From Streptomyces sp. MNU76 (lineage in GTDB: Bacteria; Actinomycetota; Actinomycetes; Streptomycetales; Streptomycetaceae): DNA of 64,000 nucleotides. Within the stretch, counting starts at the first letter, position 1. The number at the start of each line of letters is the position of its first letter. Of the stretch, positions 38,879 to 56,282 are shown piece after piece. The stretch spans positions 248,001 through 312,000 of the forward strand of contig NZ_JAJKLK010000007.1 of NCBI RefSeq assembly GCF_020982545.1, written 5' to 3'. Under the pieces are notes generated by a model, which was not told the origin of the DNA, ran no database searches, and saw nothing but the letters and a program-made list of their open reading frames with translations. Position numbers and translations under genes: made by a program.

Positions 38879-38952
38879 CGGGGTGTAGCGCAGCTTGGCA
38901 GCGCGCTTCGTTCGGGACGAAGAGGTCGTGGGTTCAAATCCCGCCACCCCGA
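38879..38952 (+). tRNA. tRNA-Pro (anticodon CGG)
   Basis: A 74-base cloverleaf: acceptor arms 38879-38885 and 38945-38951, anticodon stem CTTCG/CGAAG around the loop TTCGGGA, and T-loop GGTTCAAATCC. CCA is not encoded. The 3' half of this gene is a common attachment site for integrative elements, and an integrase remnant lies next to it. Confidence 0.95.
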
Positions 38953-38969
38953 CAGCTGGATAGCAGTTC

Positions 38970-43588: not shown

Positions 43589-44896
43589 TCACGTGGAGTG
43601 ATCTCGGAGGGTCATGGGCAGGGACGCCAGGCCTCGGGTCAGGCGGGTGTGGCGCCAAGGGAGGGTTTCGGTGGGCGTCGCCAGGGCGGCTTGGGGGTAG
43701 CGGGTGATGACGGCGTGGAGGGCGAGTTCGGCTTCGGCTCGGGCCAAGGGGGCTCCCAGGCAGCGATGGATGCCGTGGCCGAAGGCCAGGTGACCGGTGG
43801 CACTGCGGGTGAGGTCCAGGCGGTCGGGGTCGGGGAAGCGGTCGGGGTCGCGGTTGGCGGCGCCGGGTGCGATGAGGACCGGCACGCCTTCGGGGATCTC
43901 GGTGCCGCCGAGCGTGAGCGCCTCGGTGCTGAAGCGGAACGTCGCGATCCCGACCGGCGAGTCGTAGCGCAGCAACTCGTCCAGCGCACCGCCGAGGAGC
44001 TGCGGTTCGGCCCTCAGGCGCGCGAGCGACTCCGGGTGCCGTAGGAGGGCCAGGGCGGCGTTGCCGATGAAGTTGGTGGTGGTCTCGTGGCCGGCCACCA
44101 GCAGGAGTACGGCGAGCGATACGAGTTCGTCCTCGGACAGGCGGTCCTGGCCGTCGCGTACGGCGATGAGGTCGTCGAGCAGGCTGTCGCCGGGTGCGGC
44201 GCGCTTGGCGGCGACGAGGGCGGTCATGTAGTCGCCGACGGCGTGGGAGGCGGCGTCGATCCGCTGCGGGTCTCCGGCGGCGAACAGGTCGCCCGACCAA
44301 GTGCGTACGGAGGCGCGGTCGGACTCGGGCACCCCGAGCAGCTCGCAGATGACCGTGACGGGGAGCGGCATCGCGAGGTCGGCGATCAGGTCCACCGTTC
44401 CGTGGGCCGGCCAGGCGTCGAGCAACTCGTCGACCAGGGAGGAGATGGAGGGGCGCAGCCGCGCCACCGCCCCCGTGGTGAACGCCTTCGTCACCAGCGC
44501 CCGTAGCCGGGCGTGCTCCGGAGGGTCGGTGGCGAGCATGTTCCGGGATACGGCCGGATGGAGATCGCGCTGCGACGGCCGGCCTGCGAAGAACCTCGCG
44601 GTGTCCTTCGAGAGGCGGGGGTCGGTGAAGGCCTCGCGGGCCTCGGCGTAGCCCGTGACCACGTAGCTGTGGCGGCCTCCTCCCCCTGAACCGGTGGGCA
44701 CCTGGTGTACCGGTGCCGCGTCGCGGAGGCGGGCGTAGGTCGGGTAGGGGTCGGCGAAGAAGGTGGGGTCCTGCAGGGGGTCGGTGGCCGAGGGCCGCGA
44801 TGGGGTCGGGTGAGGCGGGGTTGGGTGGGACGGGCTGGACTTGTGGGGCGCGTGGGGCGGGTGGGGCGGGTGGGGCGGGTGGGGCGGGTTGGTCAC
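43589..44896 (-). CDS. Cytochrome P450
   Basis: A 435-residue P450. I-helix AGHETT (about 268-273), ExxR in DELLRY (Glu 307, Arg 310) and the heme loop FGHGIHRCLG (Cys 379) are intact. It is close to the CYP105/107-like bacterial class, which hydroxylates small molecules with ferredoxin partners; none is adjacent. The first 38 residues are a His/Pro-rich stretch made by tandem GGTGGGGCG repeats. The GTG start overlaps a TGA (GTGA) that would end the upstream DUF6545 gene, so this is the last gene of the XRE-ImmA operon. Confidence 0.93.
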   Translation of the reverse strand: MTNPPHPPHPPHPPHAPHKSSPSHPTPPHPTPSRPSATDPLQDPTFFADPYPTYARLRDAAPVHQVPTGSGGGGRHSYVVTGYAEAREAFTDPRLSKDTARFFAGRPSQRDLHPAVSRNMLATDPPEHARLRALVTKAFTTGAVARLRPSISSLVDELLDAWPAHGTVDLIADLAMPLPVTVICELLGVPESDRASVRTWSGDLFAAGDPQRIDAASHAVGDYMTALVAAKRAAPGDSLLDDLIAVRDGQDRLSEDELVSLAVLLLVAGHETTTNFIGNAALALLRHPESLARLRAEPQLLGGALDELLRYDSPVGIATFRFSTEALTLGGTEIPEGVPVLIAPGAANRDPDRFPDPDRLDLTRSATGHLAFGHGIHRCLGAPLARAEAELALHAVITRYPQAALATPTETLPWRHTRLTRGLASLPMTLRDHST

Positions 44897-46115
44897 GTTC
44901 GGGGTCCGTTCCGGACGGGGTCAGGGGTTCGGTGGTGGGGGTGGGGGTTTCGTTCTGGGTGTATGCGTGGGCTACCAGCAGCAGCCATTCGGTCTCGGCT
45001 CGGAGGTCGCCCGGTCGGGTTCCGGTCATCAACTGGATGCCGGTCATCGATGGGGGGCCGGTCACCGATCGGGTGCCGGTTCGCTTCGCTTGGACGGCCG
45101 CGCGGAGGATCGCGGCCTCCACGATCGCGTCGCCTTCCGTGGTGCCCGTCAGGCCGCGTGCGGCGACGGTTCGTTCGGCGCTCTCCCGGACGCGCGACGA
45201 GCGGTGGGGGCGGAGGGCGAGTACGCCGTCGTTGATCTCGATCACCCGGCGGTGGAGGAGGAAGTCGGGGTCGTCCGTCTGCTGCGAGCCCTCCGAGGCC
45301 AGGACGACTTCGGGGGTCGTGTCGGTGATGTCCTTCCAGAGGGGGGCCAGCGCGGCGAACGACCTCGTCTCCCAGCGACGGCGCAGGAACTGGCTGAAGG
45401 GCCAGACGACCGCCGGGAGCGTGAGCCCCAGGGTGATGAGGAGTACGGCCAGCGCCGGGGCCGTCACGCTGAACACGCAGCGGACGGGGCTGATGGGCGT
45501 CGAGCACCGGACGCCGTGCGGCAGGAGGTTCAGTTCGAGACCGATGGAGACCAGGCCGAACACCTTGTAGGCCGCGTACAGCAGCGCGAAGACGCAGCCG
45601 ACGGCGGTGATGCGCAGTCCGACGCGCTGGCTCCTGCGGCGGGAGTGGCCGGCCACCTTCCAGGTCTGCTTGCCGAAGTCCTTCGCGGTGACGCTGAGGT
45701 AGGTGATGTAGATCAGTACGTAGAGCGCGTACAACTGGGGCGAGTCGCCGTTCAGCCGGCTGGCGGTGAACAGCACCGTCATGCCGGTCACGGAGATGCC
45801 GAGGAAGAGCACGCGCCGTCGGATGCTCCGCCGGGCCTCGTCGGGTTCCAGATCGAGTTGGAGCATGAACGCGAGGACGGCGGTCGCGGCGGCCAGTGTG
45901 AAGGAGTTGCTGAGCAGCCGCCCGCCGTCGGGGACGACGCTTTCGACGGCGTTCTCCACGACGGACACGTACGAGCCGAAGGCGCAGGCGAAGGAGACGA
46001 GCAGCGCGGCCATGGCCCAGGTGCCGGTCGGCCGGTGGCCGCCGCGGCCCCGGACCCAGTAGCCGGCGGCGAGCAGCAGCACGAGGGCCACGCCTGCGAA
46101 CAAGAGGTCGATCAT
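44893..46115 (-). CDS. MAB_1171c/DUF6545-family membrane protein, 3' end disrupted
   Basis: About 407 residues if it ends at 44893. Seven membrane helices occupy residues 1-260 (including YWVRGRG, ALYVLIYITYLSVTAKDFGK, ALAVLLITLGLTLPAVVWPF), then a cytoplasmic half with FAALAPLWKDITDTTPEVV and LHRRVIEINDGVLALRPH, all family hallmarks. As given, the frame has no stop here and runs on to 43233 through the whole P450 gene. One missing base in the G-rich run at 44932-44948 would restore the TGA at 44893-44895 that overlaps the P450 start. It overlaps the ImmA gene by four bases. Role unknown; possibly a sensor or carrier that works with the protease and regulator. Confidence 0.75.
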
Positions 46116-46639
46116 CGGCGCCGACGGCCCTTTCTGGTGGGTTTGGCGAACAGGGCCTCCCAGCGTTCGGCGCCCTTCTCGGGCTCGCGGGGAGGTAACT
46201 CACGTCCGCGGTAGATGTGCTGTCGGATGACGGTGGCCATCGTCTCGGCCTCGCGCTCGTCGTCCGTGGAGTAGCTCGTGCGTCCGTTCATCCGCTGGAC
46301 GAGGGTGGGGTTGAAGCCGAGGGCGCGGAAGGCTTCGGGGTCCAGCTCCAGCGTGCCCGGGTGGTCGCAGATGATGTGGCTGACCTCGTGCGCGAGGATG
46401 TGGTTCTGGTGCAGGGCGGACGTTCCCTCCTCGTAGAAGAGGAGGTCCGCGTCAGGTGTCTCCAGGCGGATCCCGCAGGGGGCGTCGATCGCGCCGAGGG
46501 TGCTCAGGGGTCTGAGGATGATCGGACGGCCGCGCTTCTCCGCCACGGCGTCGCAGAGGTCCCGGGTGTTGAAGCGGTGGGGGAGGTGAAGCGCGTCCAC
46601 GCGTTCCTCGCACGCGCGGCGTAACCGCTCAAGGTCCAT
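46112..46639 (-). CDS. ImmA/IrrE-family metallopeptidase
   Basis: 175 residues from ATG 46639. ILAHEVSHIICDHPG contains HExxH with a downstream Glu in DDEREAETMATVI, the zinc-protease pattern of ImmA and IrrE. In Bacillus ICEs and Deinococcus such proteases cleave a partner XRE repressor and switch on its targets. The XRE gene lies upstream on the same strand, 712 bases away, and the membrane protein and P450 genes follow with overlaps. Confidence 0.88.
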   Translation of the reverse strand: MDLERLRRACEERVDALHLPHRFNTRDLCDAVAEKRGRPIILRPLSTLGAIDAPCGIRLETPDADLLFYEEGTSALHQNHILAHEVSHIICDHPGTLELDPEAFRALGFNPTLVQRMNGRTSYSTDDEREAETMATVIRQHIYRGRELPPREPEKGAERWEALFAKPTRKGRRRR

Positions 46640-47351
46640 GTCCGGTCCTGACGTTGCTCGGGTCTGGCCGCTGACGGCGTGCCCCCGTAAGGCCGGAGTG
46701 CGATCCGGGATCCCCGGCACCGAATCGTTCGAAAGCTTAGGCGAACGCGTAGGCCGGTCCAAGTGAATCTCCGGGCTGTGGCCGAATGGCCGGATCTCGC
46801 GTTCGGGGATCAGGGGGTGGTGTCGCGATCGACGCCGCAGGCGGGGTCGACGCCAGCGCCGGCACCAGGCGCTGGCCGACTGCTGCGGGCCGCCGGGGCC
46901 GGGTGGCGGTGAGGTGAGGTGGGGTGAGGTGGGTTGGGGTGAGGTGGGGTGCGAGGGCGGGAACGTGGTGGGTCAGTCGGGCAGGGACGGAGGGCAGGGC
47001 CCTGGGCGAGGCCAGGGTTGGAGAAGGAGCAGGAGCAGGAGAAGGAGCAAGGACCGAGCGGGGGAGGGGCAGGAACCAGACCCGGGGCCGGAGCTTGGGC
47101 TGAGGCGGGGGCTCGGGGCTGGGGCTCCGGGCTCGGGGCTCGGGGCTCGGGGATATCTGCGGCGGAGGAAAGATCAGCGGCAGAGGCTGGTCACCCCGAC
47201 CGTGGGCGAGCCGGCCACCCGCCGGTCGCGAGTCCACTGGCCATCAGCCACTGACCGCCGATCGGATCACCTCCGCTTGCCGATCTCCGCATGTACCCGT
47301 CGGTCGTCGATCGCCGGCCCCGCAGTACCGAGCCCCCCAGGGGCGCAGTCC
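46640..47351. other. Gap in the XRE-ImmA operon, G-rich low-complexity DNA
   Basis: 712 bases without a supported gene. It holds runs of GGTGAGGTGGGGT (about 46905-46955), AGGAGCAGGAG (about 47027-47055) and repeated GGGCTCGGG (about 47109-47155). Open frames across it are low-complexity and lack conservation features. A promoter for immA could lie here. Confidence 0.5.
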
Positions 47352-47807
47352 CTAATTGTCCAGGTCGAGGTCGGGCGGCGGTATGTCGCCCGGGAGGCCC
47401 TCCAGGATGCGGGCCTGTTCGATCACCGCTGTGACCATTTGGAGGGTCTCCGCGCTCAAGCCGTTGGCTCGTAGGGCGACCGTGCGGACGTTCTGGTCCC
47501 GCATGGCGGCCAGGACGGCGATCTCCGCTCGGGTGCGTTCGGCGGCCTTCTCGTCGACGAAGTAGCCCGCGGACACGCCGAAGAAGTCGGCCAGAGCCTT
47601 GATCGTGTGTCTCGTGGGGTTCTTCTTCGTGCCGGTGCGCAGTTGCTGGATGGCACTCGCGGTGAGCCCCTTGCCCTCCTCCCCGGAAGCCTCTCGGATC
47701 CCTTCCGCGACCTCGGCGTACGTGTAGGGCCCGCGACCCGCAGGGTGGACCTCCTGGAAGAGGTGGTCCAGCAACTGCGCGAAGGTGCGCGGCTCGTCGT
47801 CTGTCAC
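47352..47807 (-). CDS. XRE-family transcriptional regulator
   Basis: 151 residues from GTG 47807. The helix-turn-helix spans YTYAEVAEGIREAS, then LTASAIQQLRTGTKKNPTRH and TIKALADFFGVSAGYF, a Cro/CI-type fold with longer N-terminal part. The C-terminal half (KAAERTRAEIAVLAAMRDQN, LSAETLQMVTAVIEQARILE) is a helical oligomerisation region. It is the likely substrate of the ImmA-like protease. A 14-bp palindrome lies 75 bases upstream, overlapping a candidate -10. Confidence 0.9.
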   Translation of the reverse strand: MTDDEPRTFAQLLDHLFQEVHPAGRGPYTYAEVAEGIREASGEEGKGLTASAIQQLRTGTKKNPTRHTIKALADFFGVSAGYFVDEKAAERTRAEIAVLAAMRDQNVRTVALRANGLSAETLQMVTAVIEQARILEGLPGDIPPPDLDLDN

Positions 47808-47881
47808 GTCCGGTTCGTCCTGTCCTGATCGCCGCTGCGTCCACTCTGGTATGCGTGAGCGCGGACCTTGGTGGCTTCTCA

Positions 47882-47895
47882 TCAACTTTAGTTGA
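47882..47895. promoter_or_regulatory. Putative XRE operator between divergent genes
   Basis: TCAACTTTAGTTGA is a perfect palindrome. On the minus strand it contains TAAAGT, a possible -10 of the XRE gene; on the plus strand its right end overlaps TTGACG (47892-47897), a -35-like hexamer pointing to the STAND gene. The rest of 47808-48437 shows no gene. Confidence 0.55.
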
Positions 47896-48437
47896 CGATC
47901 GCCCACAACTACGGTGTACGTTCTACGGGGGTCACTCACACCAGAGTGTTCCATGGGTCCGATCGGCTGTCTTCGGCGCGGGCCATGAGAACTCCCAGCC
48001 GGTGGCCGGGTTCCGCGGGGGTGGGCCCGGCCACCTTGGAGCCGTTCCGCTTCCTCATCCTGAGTCACTTCTCCGTGACGCGCTTCGGCGCCCGGGGCGC
48101 CTCGTTCGGCACCGGTCCCTCCCCACGTGGGGACCGGTGCCGAACGGTGCGGGGTGTCGATCCACGCTTGGGGACGTGGACCGAGGGGGTGGCCAGGGGG
48201 CGTCGCCCAGGGTGGCCGGAAGCGTGCGGCATGATGGATCGGATTTGCGGGCGCTACGCCGGTGGCCCCTGCGGGGCGTGCACCGGCGTGGGCGGCTTGG
48301 GCCAGATCCTGCCAGTCGGGGCTGGTGGAAGAGGAGGGCCCTGGTGTCCGGTGACGGAATTTCCGCAGGTCAGACCAGCAAGCCGAGTTTTCCGGTCCGG
48401 ATGTCCACGTAGCGGGGGAAGGTAAGGGGTAGATGCC

Positions 48438-51400
48438 TTGAGTCACGACTCAGAGGCACGCACGGCCTTCGCGGAACGTCTCGCGCTGCTGTACAAGGAA
48501 GCGGGCAACCCTCCCCTCAAGAGCGTCTCCGAGTCGGTCGTCCGGCTGCAGCGGGTCGACGAGCGCGGGCGCCCCGTGCGGGTCTCGGCCCAGCGCATCA
48601 GTGACTGGCGACGGGCCCGGAACGTGCCCGCGCAGTTCGCCGCCCTCGCCGCCGTCCTGCACGTGCTGATCCCCGAGGCACGACGGGCGCGGCCCGTTCC
48701 GGTCTCCAAGGGGCTGTACGACATGGCCCAGTGGCAGCGGCTCTGGGAGCGGGCCCTGGCCGATCCCGCCGGGGAGCGCCCCGCGGACTCCGCGTCCGGC
48801 GCCGCCACCGCCGCGTCGGGTGCCGTCTCGGACGAGCAGCCTCCCGGCGACGGCACATCCCTCCCCGGTGGTGTCTGCCCCTACCGAGGGCTGGCCTCGT
48901 ACCGGCAGCAGGACGCCCGTTGGTTCTTCGGGCGGGAGCGGAGCACCGACGCGCTCGTGGAGCAGTTGCGCGCGGCGGGGCGCACCGGCGGTCTGGTCAT
49001 GCTCGTGGGTGCCTCGGGCGCCGGGAAGTCCTCCCTGCTCAACGCCGGACTCGTGCCCGCCGTGCGCGGCGGGGCCCTGGAGTCGGACGGTGACAGCGGC
49101 AACGGCCGGGGGAACGCGGGCGTGGGCTCGGGCCTCGGGAGCACAGGCTCCACCGGTGGGCGGAGGGCCGGTGAGGTGCTCCAGCTCGTACCGGGGGCCG
49201 ATCCGGTCGGGGAGTTGACCCGTCACATACCGGAGCTGGCGCAGGTCGTGTCCGCCGCCTACGAGCCCGGTACGCCGATGTTCGCCGAGGCGGTACGGGA
49301 GGCGGTCGCGGCGTGGGCACGGCGACGCGGGACCGAGACCCGCGACGGCGAGACCAGGGACAGCAACGACATCACCGGCCACGGCACCAGCAGCGGCAGC
49401 GGCAACACCGGCACCGGCGAACGCCCCCACCCCCACCTCCGCCCCGTCCTGATCGTCGACCAGTTCGAGGAAACCTTCACGCTCTCCTCCGACGAGGCGG
49501 ACCGGCGGACGTTCGTGCAGGTGCTCAGTGCGGCCTGCTCGCCCGGGGAGGAGGGCCGGGCGGCGCCCGTGGTCGTGGTGCTGGGCGTACGGGCCGACTT
49601 CTACGAACAGTGCCTCGGCCATCCGGAGCTGGCCGACGCCCTTCAGCACCGGCACATGGTGCTGGGGCCGTTGACCACGGCGGAACTGCGGGAGGCGGTG
49701 ACCGGCCCGGCCAAGGCCGTGGGGCTGGAGCTGGAACCGGGGCTGGCCGAGCTGATCGTGCGCGAGGTGAGCGCGGACGGGCCGCGCGGGGCGCACGACG
49801 CGGGCGTGCTGCCCCTGCTGTCGCACGCCCTGCTCGTGACGTGGCAGCGGCGTAAGGCGGGCCGGTTGACGCTGGCCGGTTACCGGGCGGCCGGCGGTAT
49901 CCAGGGCGCGGTGGCGGCCACCGCCGAGCGGGCCTGGTCGGGGCTGGACCCGGCGGCCCGCGCGGCGGCTCGGCTGCTGTTGCTGCGGCTGGTCCGGCTG
50001 GGCGAGGACACCCAGGCCACCCGGCGCCGGGGCACCCGGCGGCAGCTCGCGGACGGCTCGGCGGACCCGGCGAAGACCGAGGAGTCGCTGGAGGCGATGG
50101 CCCGCGCCCGGCTGCTGACGCTGGACGCGGAGACCGTGGAGATCACCCATGAGGCGCTGCTGCACGCCTGGCCGCGCCTGCGGGGGTGGATCGACGAGGG
50201 CCGCAACGACCATCTGCTGCGGCAGCGGCTGGAGGAGGACGGCCGCGCCTGGGAGGACTCCGGGCGGGATTCCTCGCTGCTCTACCGGGGCTCGCGCCTC
50301 GAACAGGCGCACACCTGGGCGCAGTCCACCAGCAGCGCCGGAAGCACAGGGGACGCAAGGGGCACAGGGAACACAGGCGGTGTCGGCGGCACAGGCCATG
50401 CCGGCGGCAAGGAGCGGAGCGGCGGGGGCAGGCGCGCCGGGGACCCCGGCGACATCCGCGACACCAGCGACACCGGGGGCGCCGGGGGCGCCGGGGGCGC
50501 CTTCCTGACCCGTAGCGCGGTGGAGTTCCTGGCCGCCTCGGTCCGGCTGCGTCGGCGTACCGTCCGGATCCGGCGGAGTGCCGTGGCAGCGCTGGTGGCG
50601 TTCGCCCTGGTCGCCGTCGGCTCGGCGGTGGTCGCCTGGCAGCAGCGCAACGACGCGGTGTTCGAACAGGTGGTCGCCCAGGCCGATCGGGTCCAGTTCT
50701 CCGATCCGTCGCTGTCGGCCCAGCTCGACCTGGTGGCGCACGAGCTGCGGCCCGACGACGAGGGCACCGGCAACCGGCTCGTCTCGATCGTCAACGCGCC
50801 CCTCGCCACCCCTCTCCTCGGCCACGGCGGTGCCGTCTACCTCACCTCCTTCAGCCCCGACGGGAAGTACCTGGCCACCGCCAGCTACGACCGGTCCGTA
50901 CGGCTGTGGGACGTGGCGGACCCGTCCCGGCCCAAGGCCCTGGCCAAGCCCTTGACCGGGCACACCAGCTGGGTGAGCAGCGCGGTCTTCGCGCCGGACG
51001 GCCGTACGCTGGCCAGCGCCGGCGACGACGGCACGATCCGTATGTGGGACGTGCGGGACCCGCGTGCGCCGCGCGCGCTCGGCGCACCACTGACCGGACA
51101 CGACGGCACGATCTTCCTGATCGTCTTCAGCCCGGACGGGAAGACCCTGGCGTCCGTGGGCGAGGACCACACCGTACGGCTGTGGGACGTGAGCGATCCG
51201 GCGCACGCGAAGGAGATCGGCGCGCCCCTCACCGGGCACAGTGCTCCCGTACGCGCCGTGGCGTTCGGCCCGGACGGGAAGACCCTGGCGACCGGGGGCG
51301 ACGACAACACGATCCGGCTGTGGGACGTGGCCGATCCGCGTGCTTCGCGCGCGCTGGGCACCGTGCTCAAGGGTCATACGAGTCTGGTGCACTCGCTGGC

Positions 51401-52787
51401 CTTCGGTCCCGACGGGCGGACGCTGGCCAGCGGCAGTTCGGACAACACCGTCCGGCTCTGGGACGTGGCCGAGCCACGGCGGGCGAGCGCGCTCGGCGCG
51501 CCGCTCACCGGGCACACCGGTCCCATCTGGTCCGTGGCCTTCAGCCCGGACGGCAGGACGCTCGCCGCCGCCAGCGCGGACAGTACGGCGAGTCTGTGGA
51601 ACGTGGAGGACCCCGCGTACCCGTCGCAGGTCGGCGAGCCGCTGGCCGGGGCGAGCGGGGAGATGTTCGCCCTGGGATTCAGCCCGGACGGCCGGACCCT
51701 CGCCACCGGGAGCGGCGACAGCAAGGTCCGGCTGTGGGCGCTGCCGACCTCGGACATGGTCGGCCGCAACGGCGTGTTCCGGCCGGACGGTCGGGTGCTG
51801 GCCACCGCCGGGCGCGACGGCCGGATCCGGTTGTGGAACGTGGCGGAGCCGGGGCGGCCCGTGCTGCTGGGGAAGGCGTTCACGCTCAAGGACAGCGGCA
51901 ACCGTTCCCTGTCGTTCTCCCCGGACGGACGCACCCTCTCGATCGTGGCCGGGAACCGGGCGCTGTATCTGTGGGACGTCGGCGACCCGGCCCGGCCGGT
52001 GCTGCGGGGGTCGCCGCTCCCGCTGCGGATCCGGTACACGGACGCGCAGGCCCACAGCCCGGACGGGCGGGTCCTGGCCACCTCCTACGGTGACCACGAC
52101 GTGCAGTTGTGGGACGTCGGCGACCCGTCGCACGTGGTCCCGCTCGGCAAGCCCCTCACCGGACACAAGGGTTACATCCTCGCCCTGGTCTTCAGCCCGG
52201 ACGGCAGGACCCTCGCCAGCGGCAGCGCGGACGGCACGATTCGGCTGTGGGACGTGGCGGACCCGGCGCGGTCCACACGGCTCGACGGACCTTTGACCGC
52301 CCACCGCGGCGCGGTCAGCGATCTCGTCTACAGCCCGGACGGCAGGACGCTGGCCAGTGGCGGTGGCGACGACAAGGTCCGGCTCTGGGACGTCTCCGAC
52401 CCCCGCGAGGCGACGCACCTGGGCGCGCCGCTCGCTGGCCACACCGAGGCGATCGTCTCGCTGACCTTCAGCCCGGACGGGCGGACCCTGGCCAGCGGTG
52501 GCAACGACAGCACCGTCCACCTCTGGGACGTCTCCCACCCCGCCGACGCCTCCCCCATCGGCCGGGCGATGAGCCCCAACGCCAAGACGGGCCAGTTCCT
52601 GTCCTTCAGCCCGAAGAGCGACATGCTCGGGGTCTCCAGCGGCGCCGACACCGTACGGCTGTGGAATCTGGACGTCGACGACGCCGTACGGCACATCTGC
52701 TCGTCGACTCGCGGGGTGCTCACGCGGGAGAAGTGGGACGAGTACCTGCCTCGGCTGTCGTACGAGCCACCGTGCGAGGGTTCCTGA
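48438..52787 (+). CDS. HTH-STAND NTPase with 14 WD40 repeats
   Basis: 1449 residues, likely TTG start at 48438 with AAGGGG upstream. Domains: an N-terminal helical DNA-binding-like region (about 5-85); CPYRGLASYRQQDARWFFGR (about 147-166), which opens the nSTAND1 NTPase; Walker A LVGASGAGKSS (about 189-199); Walker B PVLIVDQFEE; a winged-helix part ending LLHAWPRLRGW; a Gly-rich linker; one membrane helix (AALVAFALVAVGSAVVAW, near 715); and 14 WD40 units each with FSPDGRTLA and RLWDV, enough for two seven-blade propellers. STAND proteins are signal-triggered oligomeric switches, some of them antiviral. Here the trigger and output are unknown. It is divergent from the XRE operon. Confidence 0.9.
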   Translation: MSHDSEARTAFAERLALLYKEAGNPPLKSVSESVVRLQRVDERGRPVRVSAQRISDWRRARNVPAQFAALAAVLHVLIPEARRARPVPVSKGLYDMAQWQRLWERALADPAGERPADSASGAATAASGAVSDEQPPGDGTSLPGGVCPYRGLASYRQQDARWFFGRERSTDALVEQLRAAGRTGGLVMLVGASGAGKSSLLNAGLVPAVRGGALESDGDSGNGRGNAGVGSGLGSTGSTGGRRAGEVLQLVPGADPVGELTRHIPELAQVVSAAYEPGTPMFAEAVREAVAAWARRRGTETRDGETRDSNDITGHGTSSGSGNTGTGERPHPHLRPVLIVDQFEETFTLSSDEADRRTFVQVLSAACSPGEEGRAAPVVVVLGVRADFYEQCLGHPELADALQHRHMVLGPLTTAELREAVTGPAKAVGLELEPGLAELIVREVSADGPRGAHDAGVLPLLSHALLVTWQRRKAGRLTLAGYRAAGGIQGAVAATAERAWSGLDPAARAAARLLLLRLVRLGEDTQATRRRGTRRQLADGSADPAKTEESLEAMARARLLTLDAETVEITHEALLHAWPRLRGWIDEGRNDHLLRQRLEEDGRAWEDSGRDSSLLYRGSRLEQAHTWAQSTSSAGSTGDARGTGNTGGVGGTGHAGGKERSGGGRRAGDPGDIRDTSDTGGAGGAGGAFLTRSAVEFLAASVRLRRRTVRIRRSAVAALVAFALVAVGSAVVAWQQRNDAVFEQVVAQADRVQFSDPSLSAQLDLVAHELRPDDEGTGNRLVSIVNAPLATPLLGHGGAVYLTSFSPDGKYLATASYDRSVRLWDVADPSRPKALAKPLTGHTSWVSSAVFAPDGRTLASAGDDGTIRMWDVRDPRAPRALGAPLTGHDGTIFLIVFSPDGKTLASVGEDHTVRLWDVSDPAHAKEIGAPLTGHSAPVRAVAFGPDGKTLATGGDDNTIRLWDVADPRASRALGTVLKGHTSLVHSLAFGPDGRTLASGSSDNTVRLWDVAEPRRASALGAPLTGHTGPIWSVAFSPDGRTLAAASADSTASLWNVEDPAYPSQVGEPLAGASGEMFALGFSPDGRTLATGSGDSKVRLWALPTSDMVGRNGVFRPDGRVLATAGRDGRIRLWNVAEPGRPVLLGKAFTLKDSGNRSLSFSPDGRTLSIVAGNRALYLWDVGDPARPVLRGSPLPLRIRYTDAQAHSPDGRVLATSYGDHDVQLWDVGDPSHVVPLGKPLTGHKGYILALVFSPDGRTLASGSADGTIRLWDVADPARSTRLDGPLTAHRGAVSDLVYSPDGRTLASGGGDDKVRLWDVSDPREATHLGAPLAGHTEAIVSLTFSPDGRTLASGGNDSTVHLWDVSHPADASPIGRAMSPNAKTGQFLSFSPKSDMLGVSSGADTVRLWNLDVDDAVRHICSSTRGVLTREKWDEYLPRLSYEPPCEGS

Positions 52788-53058: not shown

Positions 53059-53805
53059 TCAGCCGTTCCATGCCTCGTCGTACGGGTCCTGCGGCGCCTT
53101 GACCGGCTTGGTCGTCGTGACCTGGAGGTAGGGGACGGCGGTGCCGTTGAGGGGGTCCTCGGTCCGTTTCGGTGTGTAGGTGCCGGTGACCTCGATCCAG
53201 GTGTCGGGCTGGAGGACGGCGGGGAGCTCGCCGGTGAGGGCGATCTTGACGGGCTGGGCGTCCGCGGCACAGCAGTTGAGGGCCATGCGGACCAGATACG
53301 GCCGGCCGGAGTCGTCGAAGGCCAGGAAGCCCGTGACCTTGAGCGTGCGGCCCGCGAGGGCCCGGCCCTTGTCGTAGACCGCGCGGCCCGCGTAGTCGGC
53401 GACGCTCAGGCGGAGGGTGCCGTCGGCGGGGAGCGTCGGATAGCCCCAGGGCTGCTCCTGGAGTGCCGTGCCGGTGCGCATCGCGGTGTAGGAACCGGCT
53501 GCGGGCGGGGCGACCAGGACGAGGGCGAGGAGCGGGAGGACGAGGAGCCAGGAGACCCTGGGTTCGCGGTGGGCGTGCGGTTCGGTCCCCTGGGTGTGCG
53601 GTTCGTTGGCCTGTGGCCCCTGGCGTCGCGCCCGGCGTTCGTACCAGAGCGTGGCGACGGCGGCGGCGATCAGGACGATGCCCGCGCCGATGAGGAGAGG
53701 GCGCAGGCCGGCCTTGACGTAGCGGAGGTAGAGGTCGGTGAAGCCGGCGTGGAGCAGGGCTCCGCCGGTGAGGAACAGGACGACGGTCTGGGCCTGGCGG
53801 TTCAC
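53059..53805 (-). CDS. TIGR03943 family membrane protein
   Basis: 248 residues from GTG 53805, overlapping the permease stop (GTGA). Two N-terminal helices (about 5-25 and 34-52), a third near 84-104, then an exported domain with SVADYAGRAVYDKGRALAGR, LVRMALNCCAADAQPV and WIEVTGTY. Pairs of this protein with a DUF318-type permease (Bacillus YcgQ and YcgR) form a two-component export or uptake unit. Given the neighbours, a metal role is plausible. Confidence 0.87.
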   Translation of the reverse strand: MNRQAQTVVLFLTGGALLHAGFTDLYLRYVKAGLRPLLIGAGIVLIAAAVATLWYERRARRQGPQANEPHTQGTEPHAHREPRVSWLLVLPLLALVLVAPPAAGSYTAMRTGTALQEQPWGYPTLPADGTLRLSVADYAGRAVYDKGRALAGRTLKVTGFLAFDDSGRPYLVRMALNCCAADAQPVKIALTGELPAVLQPDTWIEVTGTYTPKRTEDPLNGTAVPYLQVTTTKPVKAPQDPYDEAWNG

Positions 53806-54785
53806 AGCAGCACCGCCCCGACCAGGGCCGACACCAGGATCGCGAGGACGAAGGTGGCGGGGGCGAAGCGGAGCGCGAACGCGCGGCCGAAGGTGGCGGT
53901 CTGCATGGCGAAGAGTTTCAGGTCGATCATCGGGCCGACGACCAGGAAGGCCAGCCGGGAGGTCAGGGAGAACTGGGTCAGGGAGGCCGCGACGAACGCG
54001 TCCGCCTCCGAGCAGATCGACAGCAGCACGGCCAGGACGGCGAGGGCGAGGATCGCGATCGCCGGGTTGTCGGCGGCGGCGTTCAGCCAGCTCGCCGGGA
54101 CGACGGCCTTGAGCGTGGCCGCCGCCATCGCACCGACGACCAGGAACCCGCCCGCGTGCATCACGTCGTGCCGCACCGAGCCCCAGAAGGCCGCGCCCTT
54201 GCTCTGCCCCTCGTAGGACGGCCGCTCCGGCGGGCGCATCCACTCGCCGCGGCCCACCCGCTGCCACAGCCAGCCCATCGCGCACGCCACCAGCAGGCTC
54301 GCCACGAGCCTGGCCAGCACCATCTCGGGGTTCCCCGGGAACGCCACGGCGGTCGCGGTCAGCACGATCGGGTTGATCGCGGGGGCGGAGAGGAGGAAGG
54401 CGAGCGCCGCCGCGGGCGTCACGCCCCGGCGTACGAGGGCGCCCGCGACCGGCACCGAGGCGCACTCGCAACCCGGCAGCACCACCCCGGCCACGCCCGC
54501 CGCCGGGACCGCCAGGGTGGGCCGCTTCGGCAGCGCGCGGACGAAGAACGACGCCGGCACGAACACCGCGATGGCCGCCGACAGCAGCACCCCGATGACC
54601 AGGAACGGCAGGGCCTGCACGACCACCGCGACGAACACGGTCATCCAGCTCTGGGTCACGGGCGCGGACAGCAGGCCCCGCAGGGGGGCCTGTGCCACCA
54701 CCGCGAGGACCAGCAGCATGGTGAGCAGGAGGGGCGGGTCGAGATGCCGGCCGCGGTGGGGGGCTTCTTCCTTGGTTGTGGCCAC
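53802..54785 (-). CDS. Permease, DUF318/YraQ-YcgR family
   Basis: 327 residues from GTG 54785, with GGAGGT upstream; the frame is open back to 54917 but that part lies in the control region. About eight membrane helices, with VLPGCECASVPVAGALVRRG and FLLSAPAINPIVLTATAVAF as the two family repeats, including a C-x-C pair. It forms an operon with the TIGR03943 gene and is divergent from the L32/CobW genes. Confidence 0.88.
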   Translation of the reverse strand: MATTKEEAPHRGRHLDPPLLLTMLLVLAVVAQAPLRGLLSAPVTQSWMTVFVAVVVQALPFLVIGVLLSAAIAVFVPASFFVRALPKRPTLAVPAAGVAGVVLPGCECASVPVAGALVRRGVTPAAALAFLLSAPAINPIVLTATAVAFPGNPEMVLARLVASLLVACAMGWLWQRVGRGEWMRPPERPSYEGQSKGAAFWGSVRHDVMHAGGFLVVGAMAAATLKAVVPASWLNAAADNPAIAILALAVLAVLLSICSEADAFVAASLTQFSLTSRLAFLVVGPMIDLKLFAMQTATFGRAFALRFAPATFVLAILVSALVGAVLL

Positions 54786-54892
54786 GGGGGACGGTACCTC
54801 CGTAGGGAACGGCTGCACTGAGCGGGCCTGTTCGACCCTTTCCTCCCATACGGCGCCCGGCCCTCGGTTGCTCACGGCCTCCGGACCGCATT

Positions 54893-54918
54893 TTTTAGTA
54901 ATGGGATCCATTTTCATG
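54893..54918. promoter_or_regulatory. Zur-like site between the permease and L32/CobW units
   Basis: The minus strand carries TGAAAATGG (54909-54917 complement), a strong half-site for the Streptomyces Zur consensus TGAAAATnATTTTCA. The second half (CCATTAC) is imperfect. The stretch is AT-rich in a 70% GC setting and lies 38 bases before the L32 gene. This is inferred from the site and the zinc-type gene content. Confidence 0.5.
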
Positions 54919-54955
54919 TAGCGTTCCGGTCCATCACCCTGTGGAGGAGGACCCC

Positions 54956-55126
54956 ATGGCCGTACCCAAGCGGAAGATGTCCCGCAGCAACACCCGCCAC
55001 CGTCGCGCCCAGTGGAAGGCGAGCACGCCCCAGCTGGTGCCGTTCACGGTCGACGGCACCACCCACCTCGTACCGCAGCGGCTGCTGAAGGCGTACGAGC
55101 GCGGGCTGCTCCACCCCGAGGGCTGA
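54956..55126 (+). CDS. rpmF: Ribosomal protein L32, Cys-free paralogue
   Basis: 56 residues from ATG 54956, with GGAGGAGG upstream. [20 protein letters not shown] is the L32 start. The C-terminal half, where zinc-binding L32 has two CxxC pairs, contains no Cys at all. Cys-free paralogues replace zinc ribosomal proteins during zinc shortage in many bacteria. It is followed four bases later by the CobW GTPase gene. Confidence 0.92.
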
Positions 55127-55130
55127 GGCC

Positions 55131-56282
55131 GTGACGACGCTCCGGGAGCGGCTGCCCGTCACCGTCCTGTCCGGGTTCCTCGGCGCCGGCAAGACCACCC
55201 TGCTCAACCATGTCCTCGGCAACCGCGAGGGACTCCGCGTCGCGGTCATCGTCAACGACATGAGCGAGGTCAACATCGACGCCGCGCTCGTGCGCGGGGG
55301 CGAGGCGGCGCTGTCCCGCACCGAGGAGCGGCTCGTCGAGATGACCAACGGGTGCATCTGCTGCACCCTGCGCGACGATCTGCTGGAGGAGGTGGACCGG
55401 CTGGCGCGGGAGGGTCGTTTCGACTATCTGCTGATCGAGAGCTCCGGGATCAGCGAACCCATGCCCGTCGCGGCGACGTTCGCCTTCGCGCGCGACGACG
55501 GGGCCACGCTCGGGGATCTCGCCCGGCTCGACACCATGGTCACGGTCGTCGACGCGGTGAACTTCCTGCCGGAGCTCGCGGGCGGCGACGAACTGGTGGC
55601 GCGGGGGCTCGACCAGTACGAGGACGACGAGCGCACCGTGAGCGATCTGCTCATGGACCAGGTGGAGTTCGCCGACGTGATCGTCCTCAACAAGACCGAC
55701 CTGGTGGACACGGCGACCGCCGAGCGGCTCGCGGCGACCCTGGCGCGGCTCAATCCGGCGGCGCGGATCGTGCCGGTCAGCCATGGGCGGGTCCGGGTCC
55801 AGGAGGTGCTCGGCACGCGGGCGTTCGATCTCGAACGGGCTCAGCAGGCGCCGGGGTGGGTGCGGGAGCTGAACGGGGAGCATGTGCCGGAGACCGAGGA
55901 GTACGGCATCTCGTCGACCGTCTTCCGCGCCGAACGGCCCTTCCATCCCGGGCGGTTGTGGGACTTCGTGACCGAGGGGCTGGACAGCGGCGCGTTCGGG
56001 CAGGTGCTGCGGTCCAAGGGGTTCTTCACGCTCGCCGGGCGGGCGGGGGTCGTCGGGCTGTGGTCGCAGGCCGGGTCGGTGGCCCGCTTCGAACCGACGG
56101 CCGCGCAGGATGACGAGGCCCCGTTCGCGCAGGAGTTGGTGTTCATCGGGACGAGGTTGCGGGGGGACGCCCTGCGGACGGCTCTCGCCGGGTGTCTGGT
56201 GACGGAGGGCGAGGTGCGGTCCGGGGTGGCCTTCGACGACCCGTTTCCGGCATGGGAGACGCATGGGGTGGCTTGCGGGTGA
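55131..56282 (+). CDS. CobW/ZNG1-type metallochaperone GTPase
   Basis: 383 residues from GTG 55131. [17 protein letters not shown] is Walker [12 protein letters not shown] has the CxCC metal motif, SSGISEP is the switch region and LNKTDLVD the guanine-specificity motif. The C-terminal CobW_C domain ends near residue 375. These GTPases deliver zinc to client enzymes under zinc limitation (ZagA, ZNG1). It is in an operon with the Cys-free L32, which supports a zinc role over cobalt. Confidence 0.92.

What the first reader, a model, noticed from the sequence alone, without database searches (positions are those of the whole stretch)
43589..52787. XRE-ImmA-DUF6545-P450 operon facing a 14-blade STAND NTPase
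An XRE regulator, its likely ImmA/IrrE protease, a membrane protein and a P450 overlap or follow each other on one strand. A large STAND-WD40 protein with its own HTH-like start is divergent, and one palindrome (47882-47895) sits between the two units. Protease-relieved XRE repressors are established in ICEBs1 and Deinococcus; pairing one with a P450 output and a STAND sensor is not a system I know. The idea that the STAND protein and the P450 arm are one response is inference.
Basis: partly seen in the sequence, partly recalled or inferred. Interest (0 to 1): 0.75.

Follow-up and report, generated by a model that had tools for sequence, protein, structure and literature searches.

The report
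Streptomyces receptor, protease, repressor, enzyme cassette
Next to a large sensor gene that probably just happens to lie beside it, this Streptomyces stretch carries one copy of a recurring four-gene bacterial cassette: a likely self-regulating repressor, a protease, a membrane protein predicted to be shaped like our own G-protein-coupled receptors, and a swappable enzyme that may make or destroy the signal.

Summary
The four minus-strand genes are real and form a conserved unit; the STAND gene does not belong to it. The XRE protein is an EspR homologue over nearly its whole length. The next protein has a predicted IrrE/PprI-like metalloprotease fold with HExxH. The DUF6545 protein is predicted with high confidence as a seven-helix membrane protein of GPCR-like arrangement plus a conserved cytoplasmic domain. 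The P450 keeps its catalytic motifs. DUF6545 orthologues occur in 28 of 392 Streptomyces genomes and STAND orthologues in 143 of 392; they share a genome in 7 and are adjacent in 3. Conservation breaks between the two blocks near 48036-48080. The palindrome is one site of an operator-like array upstream of the EspR-like gene, found in dozens of loci without STAND. More widely, the trio recurs across actinomycetes with different genes behind it, mostly small-molecule enzymes: P450, flavin monooxygenase, amidase, amidohydrolase, phosphatase, reductases. On the membrane-protein tree 16 classes need 17 changes (minimum 15). Best reading: a receptor-gated protease relieves an autoregulated repressor, and the enzyme acts on the sensed molecule. 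Unit: well supported. Mechanism: inferred. The window's membrane gene lacks the stop codon that its relatives have.

The parts
47352..47807 (-). R: EspR-family XRE regulator, 151 aa
   Evidence: EspR PDB chains 3qf3/3r1f/4ndw, E 3e-24 to 6e-24, query 7-138
47839..47851 (.). weak operator-like site (GTCCACTCTGGTA), under the PWM threshold in the window itself
   Evidence: sites at the matching place score 9-13 in many relatives; placed in the window by eye
   Evidence: PWM score 21.4, near-fixed distance from R in relatives
47890..47919 (-). bipartite element GTACAY-N17-GTCAACY; only exact match in the own genome
47906..47919 (.). operator-like site A (minus strand GTACACCGTAGTTG), 23 bp from site B
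   Evidence: PWM score 18.5
47938..47949 (.). possible fourth site ACACCAGAGTGT
   Evidence: read by eye; not over the PWM threshold; sites near -161/-164 score 8.5-12 in several relatives
46112..46639 (-). I: IrrE/ImmA-like zinc protease with HEVSH, 175 aa
   Evidence: H84 E85 H88 H93 invariant in 47 sequences; IrrE 3dti Z 10.2, rmsd 2.8, 103 residues
44940..46115 (-). M: DUF6545/MAB_1171c membrane protein, 7 predicted TM helices plus cytoplasmic domain; its frame has no stop here and runs open to 43233
43589..44896 (-). X: cytochrome P450, 435 aa, with a Pro-His repeat extension at its N-terminus
   Evidence: Pfam; FGHGIHRCLG, AGHETT, ELLR motifs; 9-bp tandem repeat 44843-44889
48037..48079 (.). 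junction between the cassette block and the STAND block
   Evidence: ends of nucleotide matches: cassettes without adjacent STAND (L096, L097) end at 48036; STAND loci without cassette (L195, L196) begin at 48098 and 48080
48438..52787 (+). STAND: nSTAND1 NTPase with 14 WD40 repeats; neighbour, judged NOT part of the system
   Evidence: PF20703 E 4.8e-121; distribution

Best explanation
Genes R-I-M-X (EspR-like regulator, IrrE-like protease, 7TM protein, enzyme) form one signalling cassette; the STAND gene is an unrelated neighbour. R binds tandem palindromic sites (GTNNACYNNAGTK, 23 bp apart) upstream of its own gene and keeps the cassette low. M is an N-out, C-in seven-helix receptor for a small, probably lipophilic, molecule. 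Ligand binding acts through its conserved cytoplasmic DUF6545 domain on protease I. I then cleaves or inactivates R, the operon switches on, and X (here a P450) chemically changes the sensed molecule and so sets or ends the signal. Shown here by computation: the unit, its co-inheritance, the element and its position, the predicted folds, and the variable follower gene. Inferred: ligand binding, the M-to-I signal, cleavage of R, repression, and that X acts on the ligand.
For: Unit: of 79 M loci (60-genome draw plus own genome) an ImmA-like gene lies within 2.5 kb in 76 and an EspR-like gene within 3.5 kb in 60. Of 27 examined loci with close M orthologues, 23 hold all four genes. Of 80 named loci (best 80 of 340), ImmA-like in 78, EspR-like in 77, P450 in 46. 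R, I, M, P distances correlate at r 0.84-0.96 over 59 distinct loci. Element: TACAY-N17-GTCAA upstream of R in 43 of 59 distinct R-I-M-P loci, 54 hits in 1.86 Mb of both strands. PWM score >=13 upstream of R in 50 of 60 P450-class loci, 18 of 87 other loci, 11 of 497 control genes. Only exact match in the own genome. Protease: HExxH invariant in 47; IrrE fold. Receptor: model pLDDT 90.3, pTM 0.82; the 50 VIA rows shown are GPCRs or GPCR-like designs, Z 14.5-17.5, rmsd 3.4-5.1, 202-233 residues; membrane part less conserved (0.28) than cytoplasmic part (0.39). Enzyme: P450, FAD monooxygenase, amidase, amidohydrolase, PAP2, SDR, AKR, GGT, AMP-ligase, GH1 in the same slot (clusters named from 1-3 scanned members each). 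Class follows the M tree: 17 changes for 16 classes over 128 labelled rows, shuffled mean 63.4.
Against: No binding, cleavage or expression data. 19 of 79 M loci lack a detectable EspR-like gene, and 30 of 79 have no same-strand follower within 400 bp. 41 of 169 tree rows bore no label and were left out of the count. NCBIfam names M a 'putative transporter', and a published knockout of the M. abscessus member was read as a transport gene (passages). Foldseek E-values for M and I are above 0.001, and Z 14-17 is only just above the stated baseline for helical proteins. Not all neighbours are enzymes: TetR, ArsR, thiamine-binding and NsdA-like proteins occur. No strong element lies before I where another gene separates R from I. 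16 of 59 R-I-M-P loci lack the bipartite element. In this strain M lacks its stop, so the window copy may be impaired.
Confidence: 0.5

Rival explanations
1. STAND and the operon are one response: the STAND protein senses stress or phage and the shared palindrome couples both promoters.
For: Divergent neighbours in own, G248 (contig of the S. caniscabiei length) and G350 and in S. tailanensis L217. On one plasmid a WD40-repeat protein is annotated about 1.4 kb beyond the R gene of another P450 cassette (L297; whether it is a STAND protein was not tested).
Against: Adjacent in 3 of 28 cassette genomes; co-occurrence in 7 of 28, not above chance. Separate conserved blocks with a junction near 48036-48080. 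Element conserved without adjacent STAND. No PADLOC match for the four cassette proteins.
Confidence: 0.04
2. M is a transporter: the cassette exports or imports a compound and the P450 modifies it, with R and I only controlling expression (resistance or self-protection cassette).
For: NCBIfam name and the M. abscessus knockout study; enzymes that could detoxify.
Against: The 50 structural rows shown are GPCR-like, which does not exclude a transporter. The most conserved part is the cytoplasmic domain, not the membrane part. A protease gene adjoins in 76 of 79.
Confidence: 0.22
3. R and I are a toxin-antitoxin pair (public annotation calls I 'toxin' in two records) that stabilises a cargo enzyme.
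For: Label 'toxin' for the gene in the I position on two plasmids ('hypothetical protein' on two others); 11 plasmid records with M homologues.
Against: I has a predicted protease fold and invariant HExxH. M nearly always has I beside it and the follower class goes with the M tree, which addiction does not explain. M has no match in the phage records.
Confidence: 0.1
4. The enzyme makes a hormone from a common precursor and M is its receptor (positive feedback, cell-cell signalling), instead of the enzyme ending the signal.
For: Follower class goes with the M tree; one M-R-I locus lies beside a ketosynthase-aminotransferase gene (L127).
Against: Nothing here tells synthesis from breakdown; many partners are hydrolases.
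Confidence: 0.3

Closest known systems
ICEBs1 ImmR/ImmA and Deinococcus DdrO/IrrE(PprI)
   Same: XRE regulator gene followed by an HExxH protease of IrrE-like fold; IrrE cleaves DdrO (abstract starts)
   Different: Regulator is EspR-type; a 7TM protein and a swappable enzyme follow; M has no match in the phage records
EspR of Mycobacterium tuberculosis (PMC3315491, passages read)
   Same: Homology over residues 7-138; EspR autoregulates and binds several sites cooperatively at its own promoter
   Different: Reported EspR motif is TTTGC[TC][GA]; the conserved element here is GTNNACYNNAGTK; EspR was described as a genome-wide nucleoid protein, with no protease partner in the passages read
GPCRs (fold only)
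   Same: Seven-helix arrangement over about residues 1-240, Z 14.5-17.5 in the rows shown; N-out/C-in suggested by loop charges in two of three inner loops
   Different: Identity 6-15%; a cytoplasmic DUF6545 helical domain; no G protein known (recalled); homology not shown
BlaR1/MecR1-BlaI signalling (recalled)
   Same: Membrane sensor that leads to metalloprotease inactivation of an autoregulated repressor
   Different: In BlaR1 sensor and protease are one protein; here they would be two

Membership tests
XRE/ImmA-IrrE protease-relieved repressor systems | XRE regulator gene next to an HExxH protease gene | tested here: met
   both near M in 60 of 79 loci; in the window order R-I
XRE/ImmA-IrrE protease-relieved repressor systems | Protease has IrrE fold and HExxH | tested here: met
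   predicted model: 3dti Z 10.2, rmsd 2.8, 103 residues; H84 E85 H88 invariant in 47
XRE/ImmA-IrrE protease-relieved repressor systems | Protease matches the curated Pfam/NCBIfam models | tested here: not met
   no family at E<=0.01; hence filed as a variant by fold and motif, not as a member of the curated family
XRE/ImmA-IrrE protease-relieved repressor systems | Protease cleaves the regulator and derepresses its genes | not testable with these tools
   needs biochemistry
EspR family | Homology over HTH and C-terminal part | tested here: met
   query 7-138 to EspR, E 3.2e-24
EspR family | Binds TTTGC[TC][GA] sites | tested here: inconclusive
   the conserved element differs; binding itself not tested
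GPCR-like 7TM receptors | Seven-helix GPCR arrangement | tested here: met
   predicted model only; Z 14.5-17.5, rmsd 3.4-5.1 in the 50 rows shown; just above the stated helical baseline
GPCR-like 7TM receptors | Ligand-gated signalling | not testable with these tools
   none
MAB_1171c family (NF042915) / DUF6545 | Score over curated cut-off | tested here: met
   231.5 bits against 100; 115.4 against 24.4
Cytochrome P450 | Heme Cys motif, ExxR, I-helix Thr | tested here: met
STAND-containing defence or signalling system | STAND co-inherited with the operon | tested here: not met
   adjacent in 3 of 28; co-occurrence 7 of 28

The most novel reading that the evidence does not exclude
Actinomycetes carry a large, diversified family of GPCR-like receptors, each paired with a dedicated enzyme that makes or destroys its ligand and signalling by a separate IrrE-type protease to an autoregulated EspR-type repressor: a bacterial hormone or xenobiotic-sensing system readable from the genome, in which the enzyme next door tells the chemistry of the ligand.
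Probability: 0.33. Interest if true: 0.9.

Novelty: new variant of a known kind. Interest (0 to 1): 0.72.

Why it matters
If true, a family named 'putative transporter' (NF042915; in 49 of 61 Streptomyces genomes) is a receptor family with matched enzymes and a compact promoter reporter. That would give a direct route to unknown signalling or toxic molecules in Streptomyces, and a two-protein relative of membrane-sensor-to-protease signalling. In the held paper library 'MAB_1171c' occurs in 1 paper and 'DUF6545' in none.

Tried and rejected
STAND partnership: tested by distribution, synteny and element conservation, and rejected. Element as a STAND-side operator: rejected, since it sits at a near-fixed distance from R in loci with unrelated upstream genes. 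A wider regulon: in the own genome the cassette site is the only exact match, but G350, G004 and G066 have one further exact match each and G253 two. With one mismatch allowed, the 14 genomes give 104 matches, 13 of them at the cassette, against 60 for the reversed pattern (my sums), so a wider regulon is not excluded; not followed. Phage origin: M has no match in the phage records. Defence: PADLOC gave a HEAT-ARM_XIII match over the WD40 part and a weak PtuA match for STAND, none for the four cassette proteins. Difference between outer and inner halves of the TM helices as a sign of ligand diversification: none seen (0.287 against 0.299). Element before I where another gene separates R and I: one weak hit type only (score 8.7). 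No transporter is among the 50 rows shown by VIA for M, which does not exclude one. Paper searches with combinations of ImmA/IrrE, XRE, P450, EspR, Streptomyces and 7TM gave nothing on this cassette in the titles and abstract starts listed (0 papers; 15 of 29 listed; 20 of 371 listed; 4 of 4); these papers were not read.

Limits: gene calls outside the named families come from my own codon-bias script, and R/I/M/P assignments from HMMs grown from the window proteins. The PWM was built from P450-class loci, so its count there is partly circular; the 87 'other' loci are not used in it, but at least two of the 18 hits among them (L113, L233) belong to the same M subfamily without a P450 seen. Related loci are not independent samples. 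The unnamed loci mix selected orthologues (L095-L114, L120, L121, L211-L214) with loci taken from the list, from which 78 loci plus the window were used (over 150 matches were listed). Of the 28 genomes, 27 loci were examined; G046 was not fetched. The genome search scored at most 4 or 8 candidates in the genomes listed. Two single followers (L132, L158) were not scanned and L162 gave no family. In the tree count one of the 16 classes is a gene order (M-R-I), not a follower type, and the FastTree run warned of long branches.
Full report
WHAT IS THERE. The window lies in a Streptomyces-type genome of 10.5 Mb; its nearest named match is S. caniscabiei (which may leave out the own record). On the minus strand run an XRE regulator (47352-47807), an HExxH protein (46112-46639), a DUF6545 membrane protein (from 46115) and a P450 (43589-44896). 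A divergent nSTAND1-WD40 protein occupies 48438-52787. The P450 keeps the heme, I-helix and ExxR motifs, and the STAND protein a Walker A motif and 14 WD-repeat ends. The XRE protein aligns over residues 7-138 of 151 with EspR of M. tuberculosis (E 3.2e-24). The HExxH protein has no Pfam or NCBIfam hit at E<=0.01.

THE STAND GENE IS A NEIGHBOUR, NOT A PARTNER. Among 392 Streptomyces genomes, orthologues of this DUF6545 protein (E<=1e-60) occur in 28 and orthologues of the STAND N-terminus (E<=1e-20) in 143. Comparing the two lists, 7 genomes hold both (7 of 28 against 136 of 364, Fisher p 0.23). The genes are adjacent in 3 (own, G248, G350), about 10 kb apart in G253 and far apart in G021, G290 and G151. 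Among the 80 named loci the STAND N-terminus lies beside the cassette in L215 (a contig of the same length as the G248 one) and L217; L220 gave only a weak 56-residue match. Matches to cassettes with no STAND gene beside them end at 48036 (L097 from G239, which has no STAND hit; L096 from G253, where STAND is 10 kb off). Matches to STAND loci without a cassette begin at 48098 (L195), 48080 (L196) and 48226 (L197). In L098 and L217, where both adjoin, homology breaks between about 47953 and 48103; in the closest relative L095 it runs through. Of 15 STAND loci fetched, three (L195, L196, L206) share the window's downstream DUF1980/ArsP flank, L209 has window upstream genes, and the other eleven show no other window gene (a weak 47-bit match aside, and L197 is a short contig).

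THE PALINDROME. The 47882-47895 repeat is half of an element, GTACAY-N17-GTCAACY, upstream of the EspR-like gene. TACAY-N17-GTCAA is found there in 43 of 59 distinct R-I-M-P loci, mostly near -130 from the domain start; 54 matches occur in 1.86 Mb of both strands. Both halves fit GTNNACYNNAGTK, are spaced 23 bp, and are often joined by further copies near -161 and -64. Upstream 300 bp with a score of 13 or more: 50 of 60 P450-class R genes, 18 of 87 other R genes, 11 of 497 control genes. In 14 genomes searched, an exact match sits at the cassette in 11 and a 1-mismatch match in 2 more; G121 has neither. In the own genome the cassette site is the only exact match; four of the other genomes have one or two exact matches elsewhere. 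So the element goes with the EspR-like gene, and EspR-type autoregulation is the natural reading. EspR itself autoregulates cooperatively through several sites, but with another motif (PMC3315491, passages).

THE WIDER MODULE. DUF6545/MAB_1171c proteins occur in 49 of 61 Streptomyces genomes, often several per genome; the own genome has six. In a draw of 296 genomes of the phylum, 13 pass the family cut-off and 11 of these are Streptomyces. Of 79 loci, 76 have the protease and 60 the EspR-like gene nearby. Of the 80 best named loci, from 18 genera by record title, 78 and 77 hold them. Of 27 loci with close orthologues of this M, 23 hold all four genes. Behind the membrane gene the follower varies. 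In the 79-locus set: FAD monooxygenase 11, P450 7, amidase 7, PAP2 5, amidohydrolase 4, SDR 3, AKR 2, thiamine-binding 2, eight single cases, and none within 400 bp in 30 (clusters by BLASTP, named from one to three scanned members). In the own genome, separate loci pair with a P450 (window), a FAD monooxygenase (L117), an amidohydrolase (L116) and an amidase fragment (L115); L118 has the trio without a follower and L119 the membrane gene without a protease found. One subfamily has the order M-R-I; in L127 it lies beside a ketosynthase-aminotransferase gene, and a TetR-like gene precedes M in L124. On a 169-row tree of the membrane protein, 16 classes (15 follower types and the M-R-I order) need 17 changes over 128 labelled rows (least possible 15, shuffled mean 63.4; 41 rows unlabelled; FastTree with long-branch warnings). 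The R, I, M and P450 distance matrices correlate at 0.84-0.96. Partner chemistry thus follows the membrane protein.

STRUCTURES. The membrane protein model has pLDDT 90.3 and pTM 0.82. About residues 1-240 align with GPCRs and designed GPCR-like folds at Z 14.5-17.5, rmsd 3.4-5.1, 202-233 residues, in the 50 rows shown; Foldseek E-values are 0.03 or worse. Helical proteins reach about 14 without a clear match, so this supports the arrangement, not homology. Loop charges suggest N-out/C-in: two of the three inner loops are Arg/Lys-rich, the loop between helices 3 and 4 is not. The cytoplasmic part is more conserved (0.388) than the membrane part (0.279), with an almost invariant core RRVIEIxD. 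The protease model (pLDDT 78) matches IrrE 3dti at Z 10.2, rmsd 2.8, 103 residues (Foldseek probability 1.00, E 0.0078), and its HExxH is invariant in 47 sequences.

HOW IT MOST LIKELY WORKS. Resting state: R dimers on the tandem sites hold the operon low. Signal: a small molecule binds M, the cytoplasmic domain activates or releases I, I removes R, the operon switches on, and the enzyme acts on the molecule. The arrows are inferred; the parts, their conservation and their pairing are computed. Synthesis and breakdown of the signal are not separable with these data. A transporter role for M stays the main rival: its only paper in the library, read in passages, treats the M. abscessus member as transport-related.

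CAUTION ON THIS COPY. In the eight relatives checked, the membrane gene ends at a TGA that overlaps the P450 start. The window has one C fewer in the C run just before than its closest relative L095, so its frame stays open to 43233, and the P450 has a Pro-His repeat N-terminus from a 9-bp tandem repeat. A sequencing error and a real change cannot be told apart here.

VERDICT. As a STAND system the finding is refuted; as a modular receptor-protease-repressor-enzyme family that I found undescribed in the searches named, it is interesting. Filed as a new variant of the XRE/IrrE protease kind.

Noticed in passing
48103-48147: Strong hairpin upstream of the STAND gene (48100-48160 folds at -40.7 kcal/mol, z -3.6), conserved in STAND-bearing relatives with and without the cassette (L095, L098, L195, L196, L197); a likely STAND-side element.
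   Followed up: partly
44896-44925: One C fewer than in L095 in a C run; the DUF6545 gene lacks the stop that eight relatives have, and its frame runs open through the P450 region to 43233.
   Followed up: partly
46810-47350: About 510 bp, partly G-rich tandem repeats, between the EspR-like and ImmA-like genes, absent in G248.
   Followed up: no
L106, L111 and relatives: In one subclade a divergent gene sits between R and I; in the two tested (L106, L111) it carries an MmyB-like ligand-binding domain (MLTR_LBD).
   Followed up: partly
L127:3625-7035, L124:9084-9662: M-R-I variant beside a ketosynthase-aminotransferase fusion gene (L127) and with a TetR-like gene before M (L124): possible biosynthetic cluster.
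   Followed up: no
53059-56282: DUF1980, ArsP-type permease, L32-like ribosomal protein and CobW-like GTPase downstream of STAND; reads like a zinc-limitation locus (recalled idea; DUF1980 and ArsP, the other two names by eye).
   Followed up: no
38879-38953: tRNA-Pro(CGG), recalled as an integration site of pSAM2-type elements; 39-41 kb is poorly coding by my gene finder.
   Followed up: no
L296, L297, L298: Plasmid copies carry the module too: with P450 on two Streptomyces plasmids, with a PAP2 phosphatase on a mobilizable Amycolatopsis plasmid.
   Followed up: partly
L297:8659-9876: A WD40-repeat protein is annotated about 1.4 kb beyond the XRE gene of a plasmid P450 cassette; not tested for a STAND domain.
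   Followed up: no
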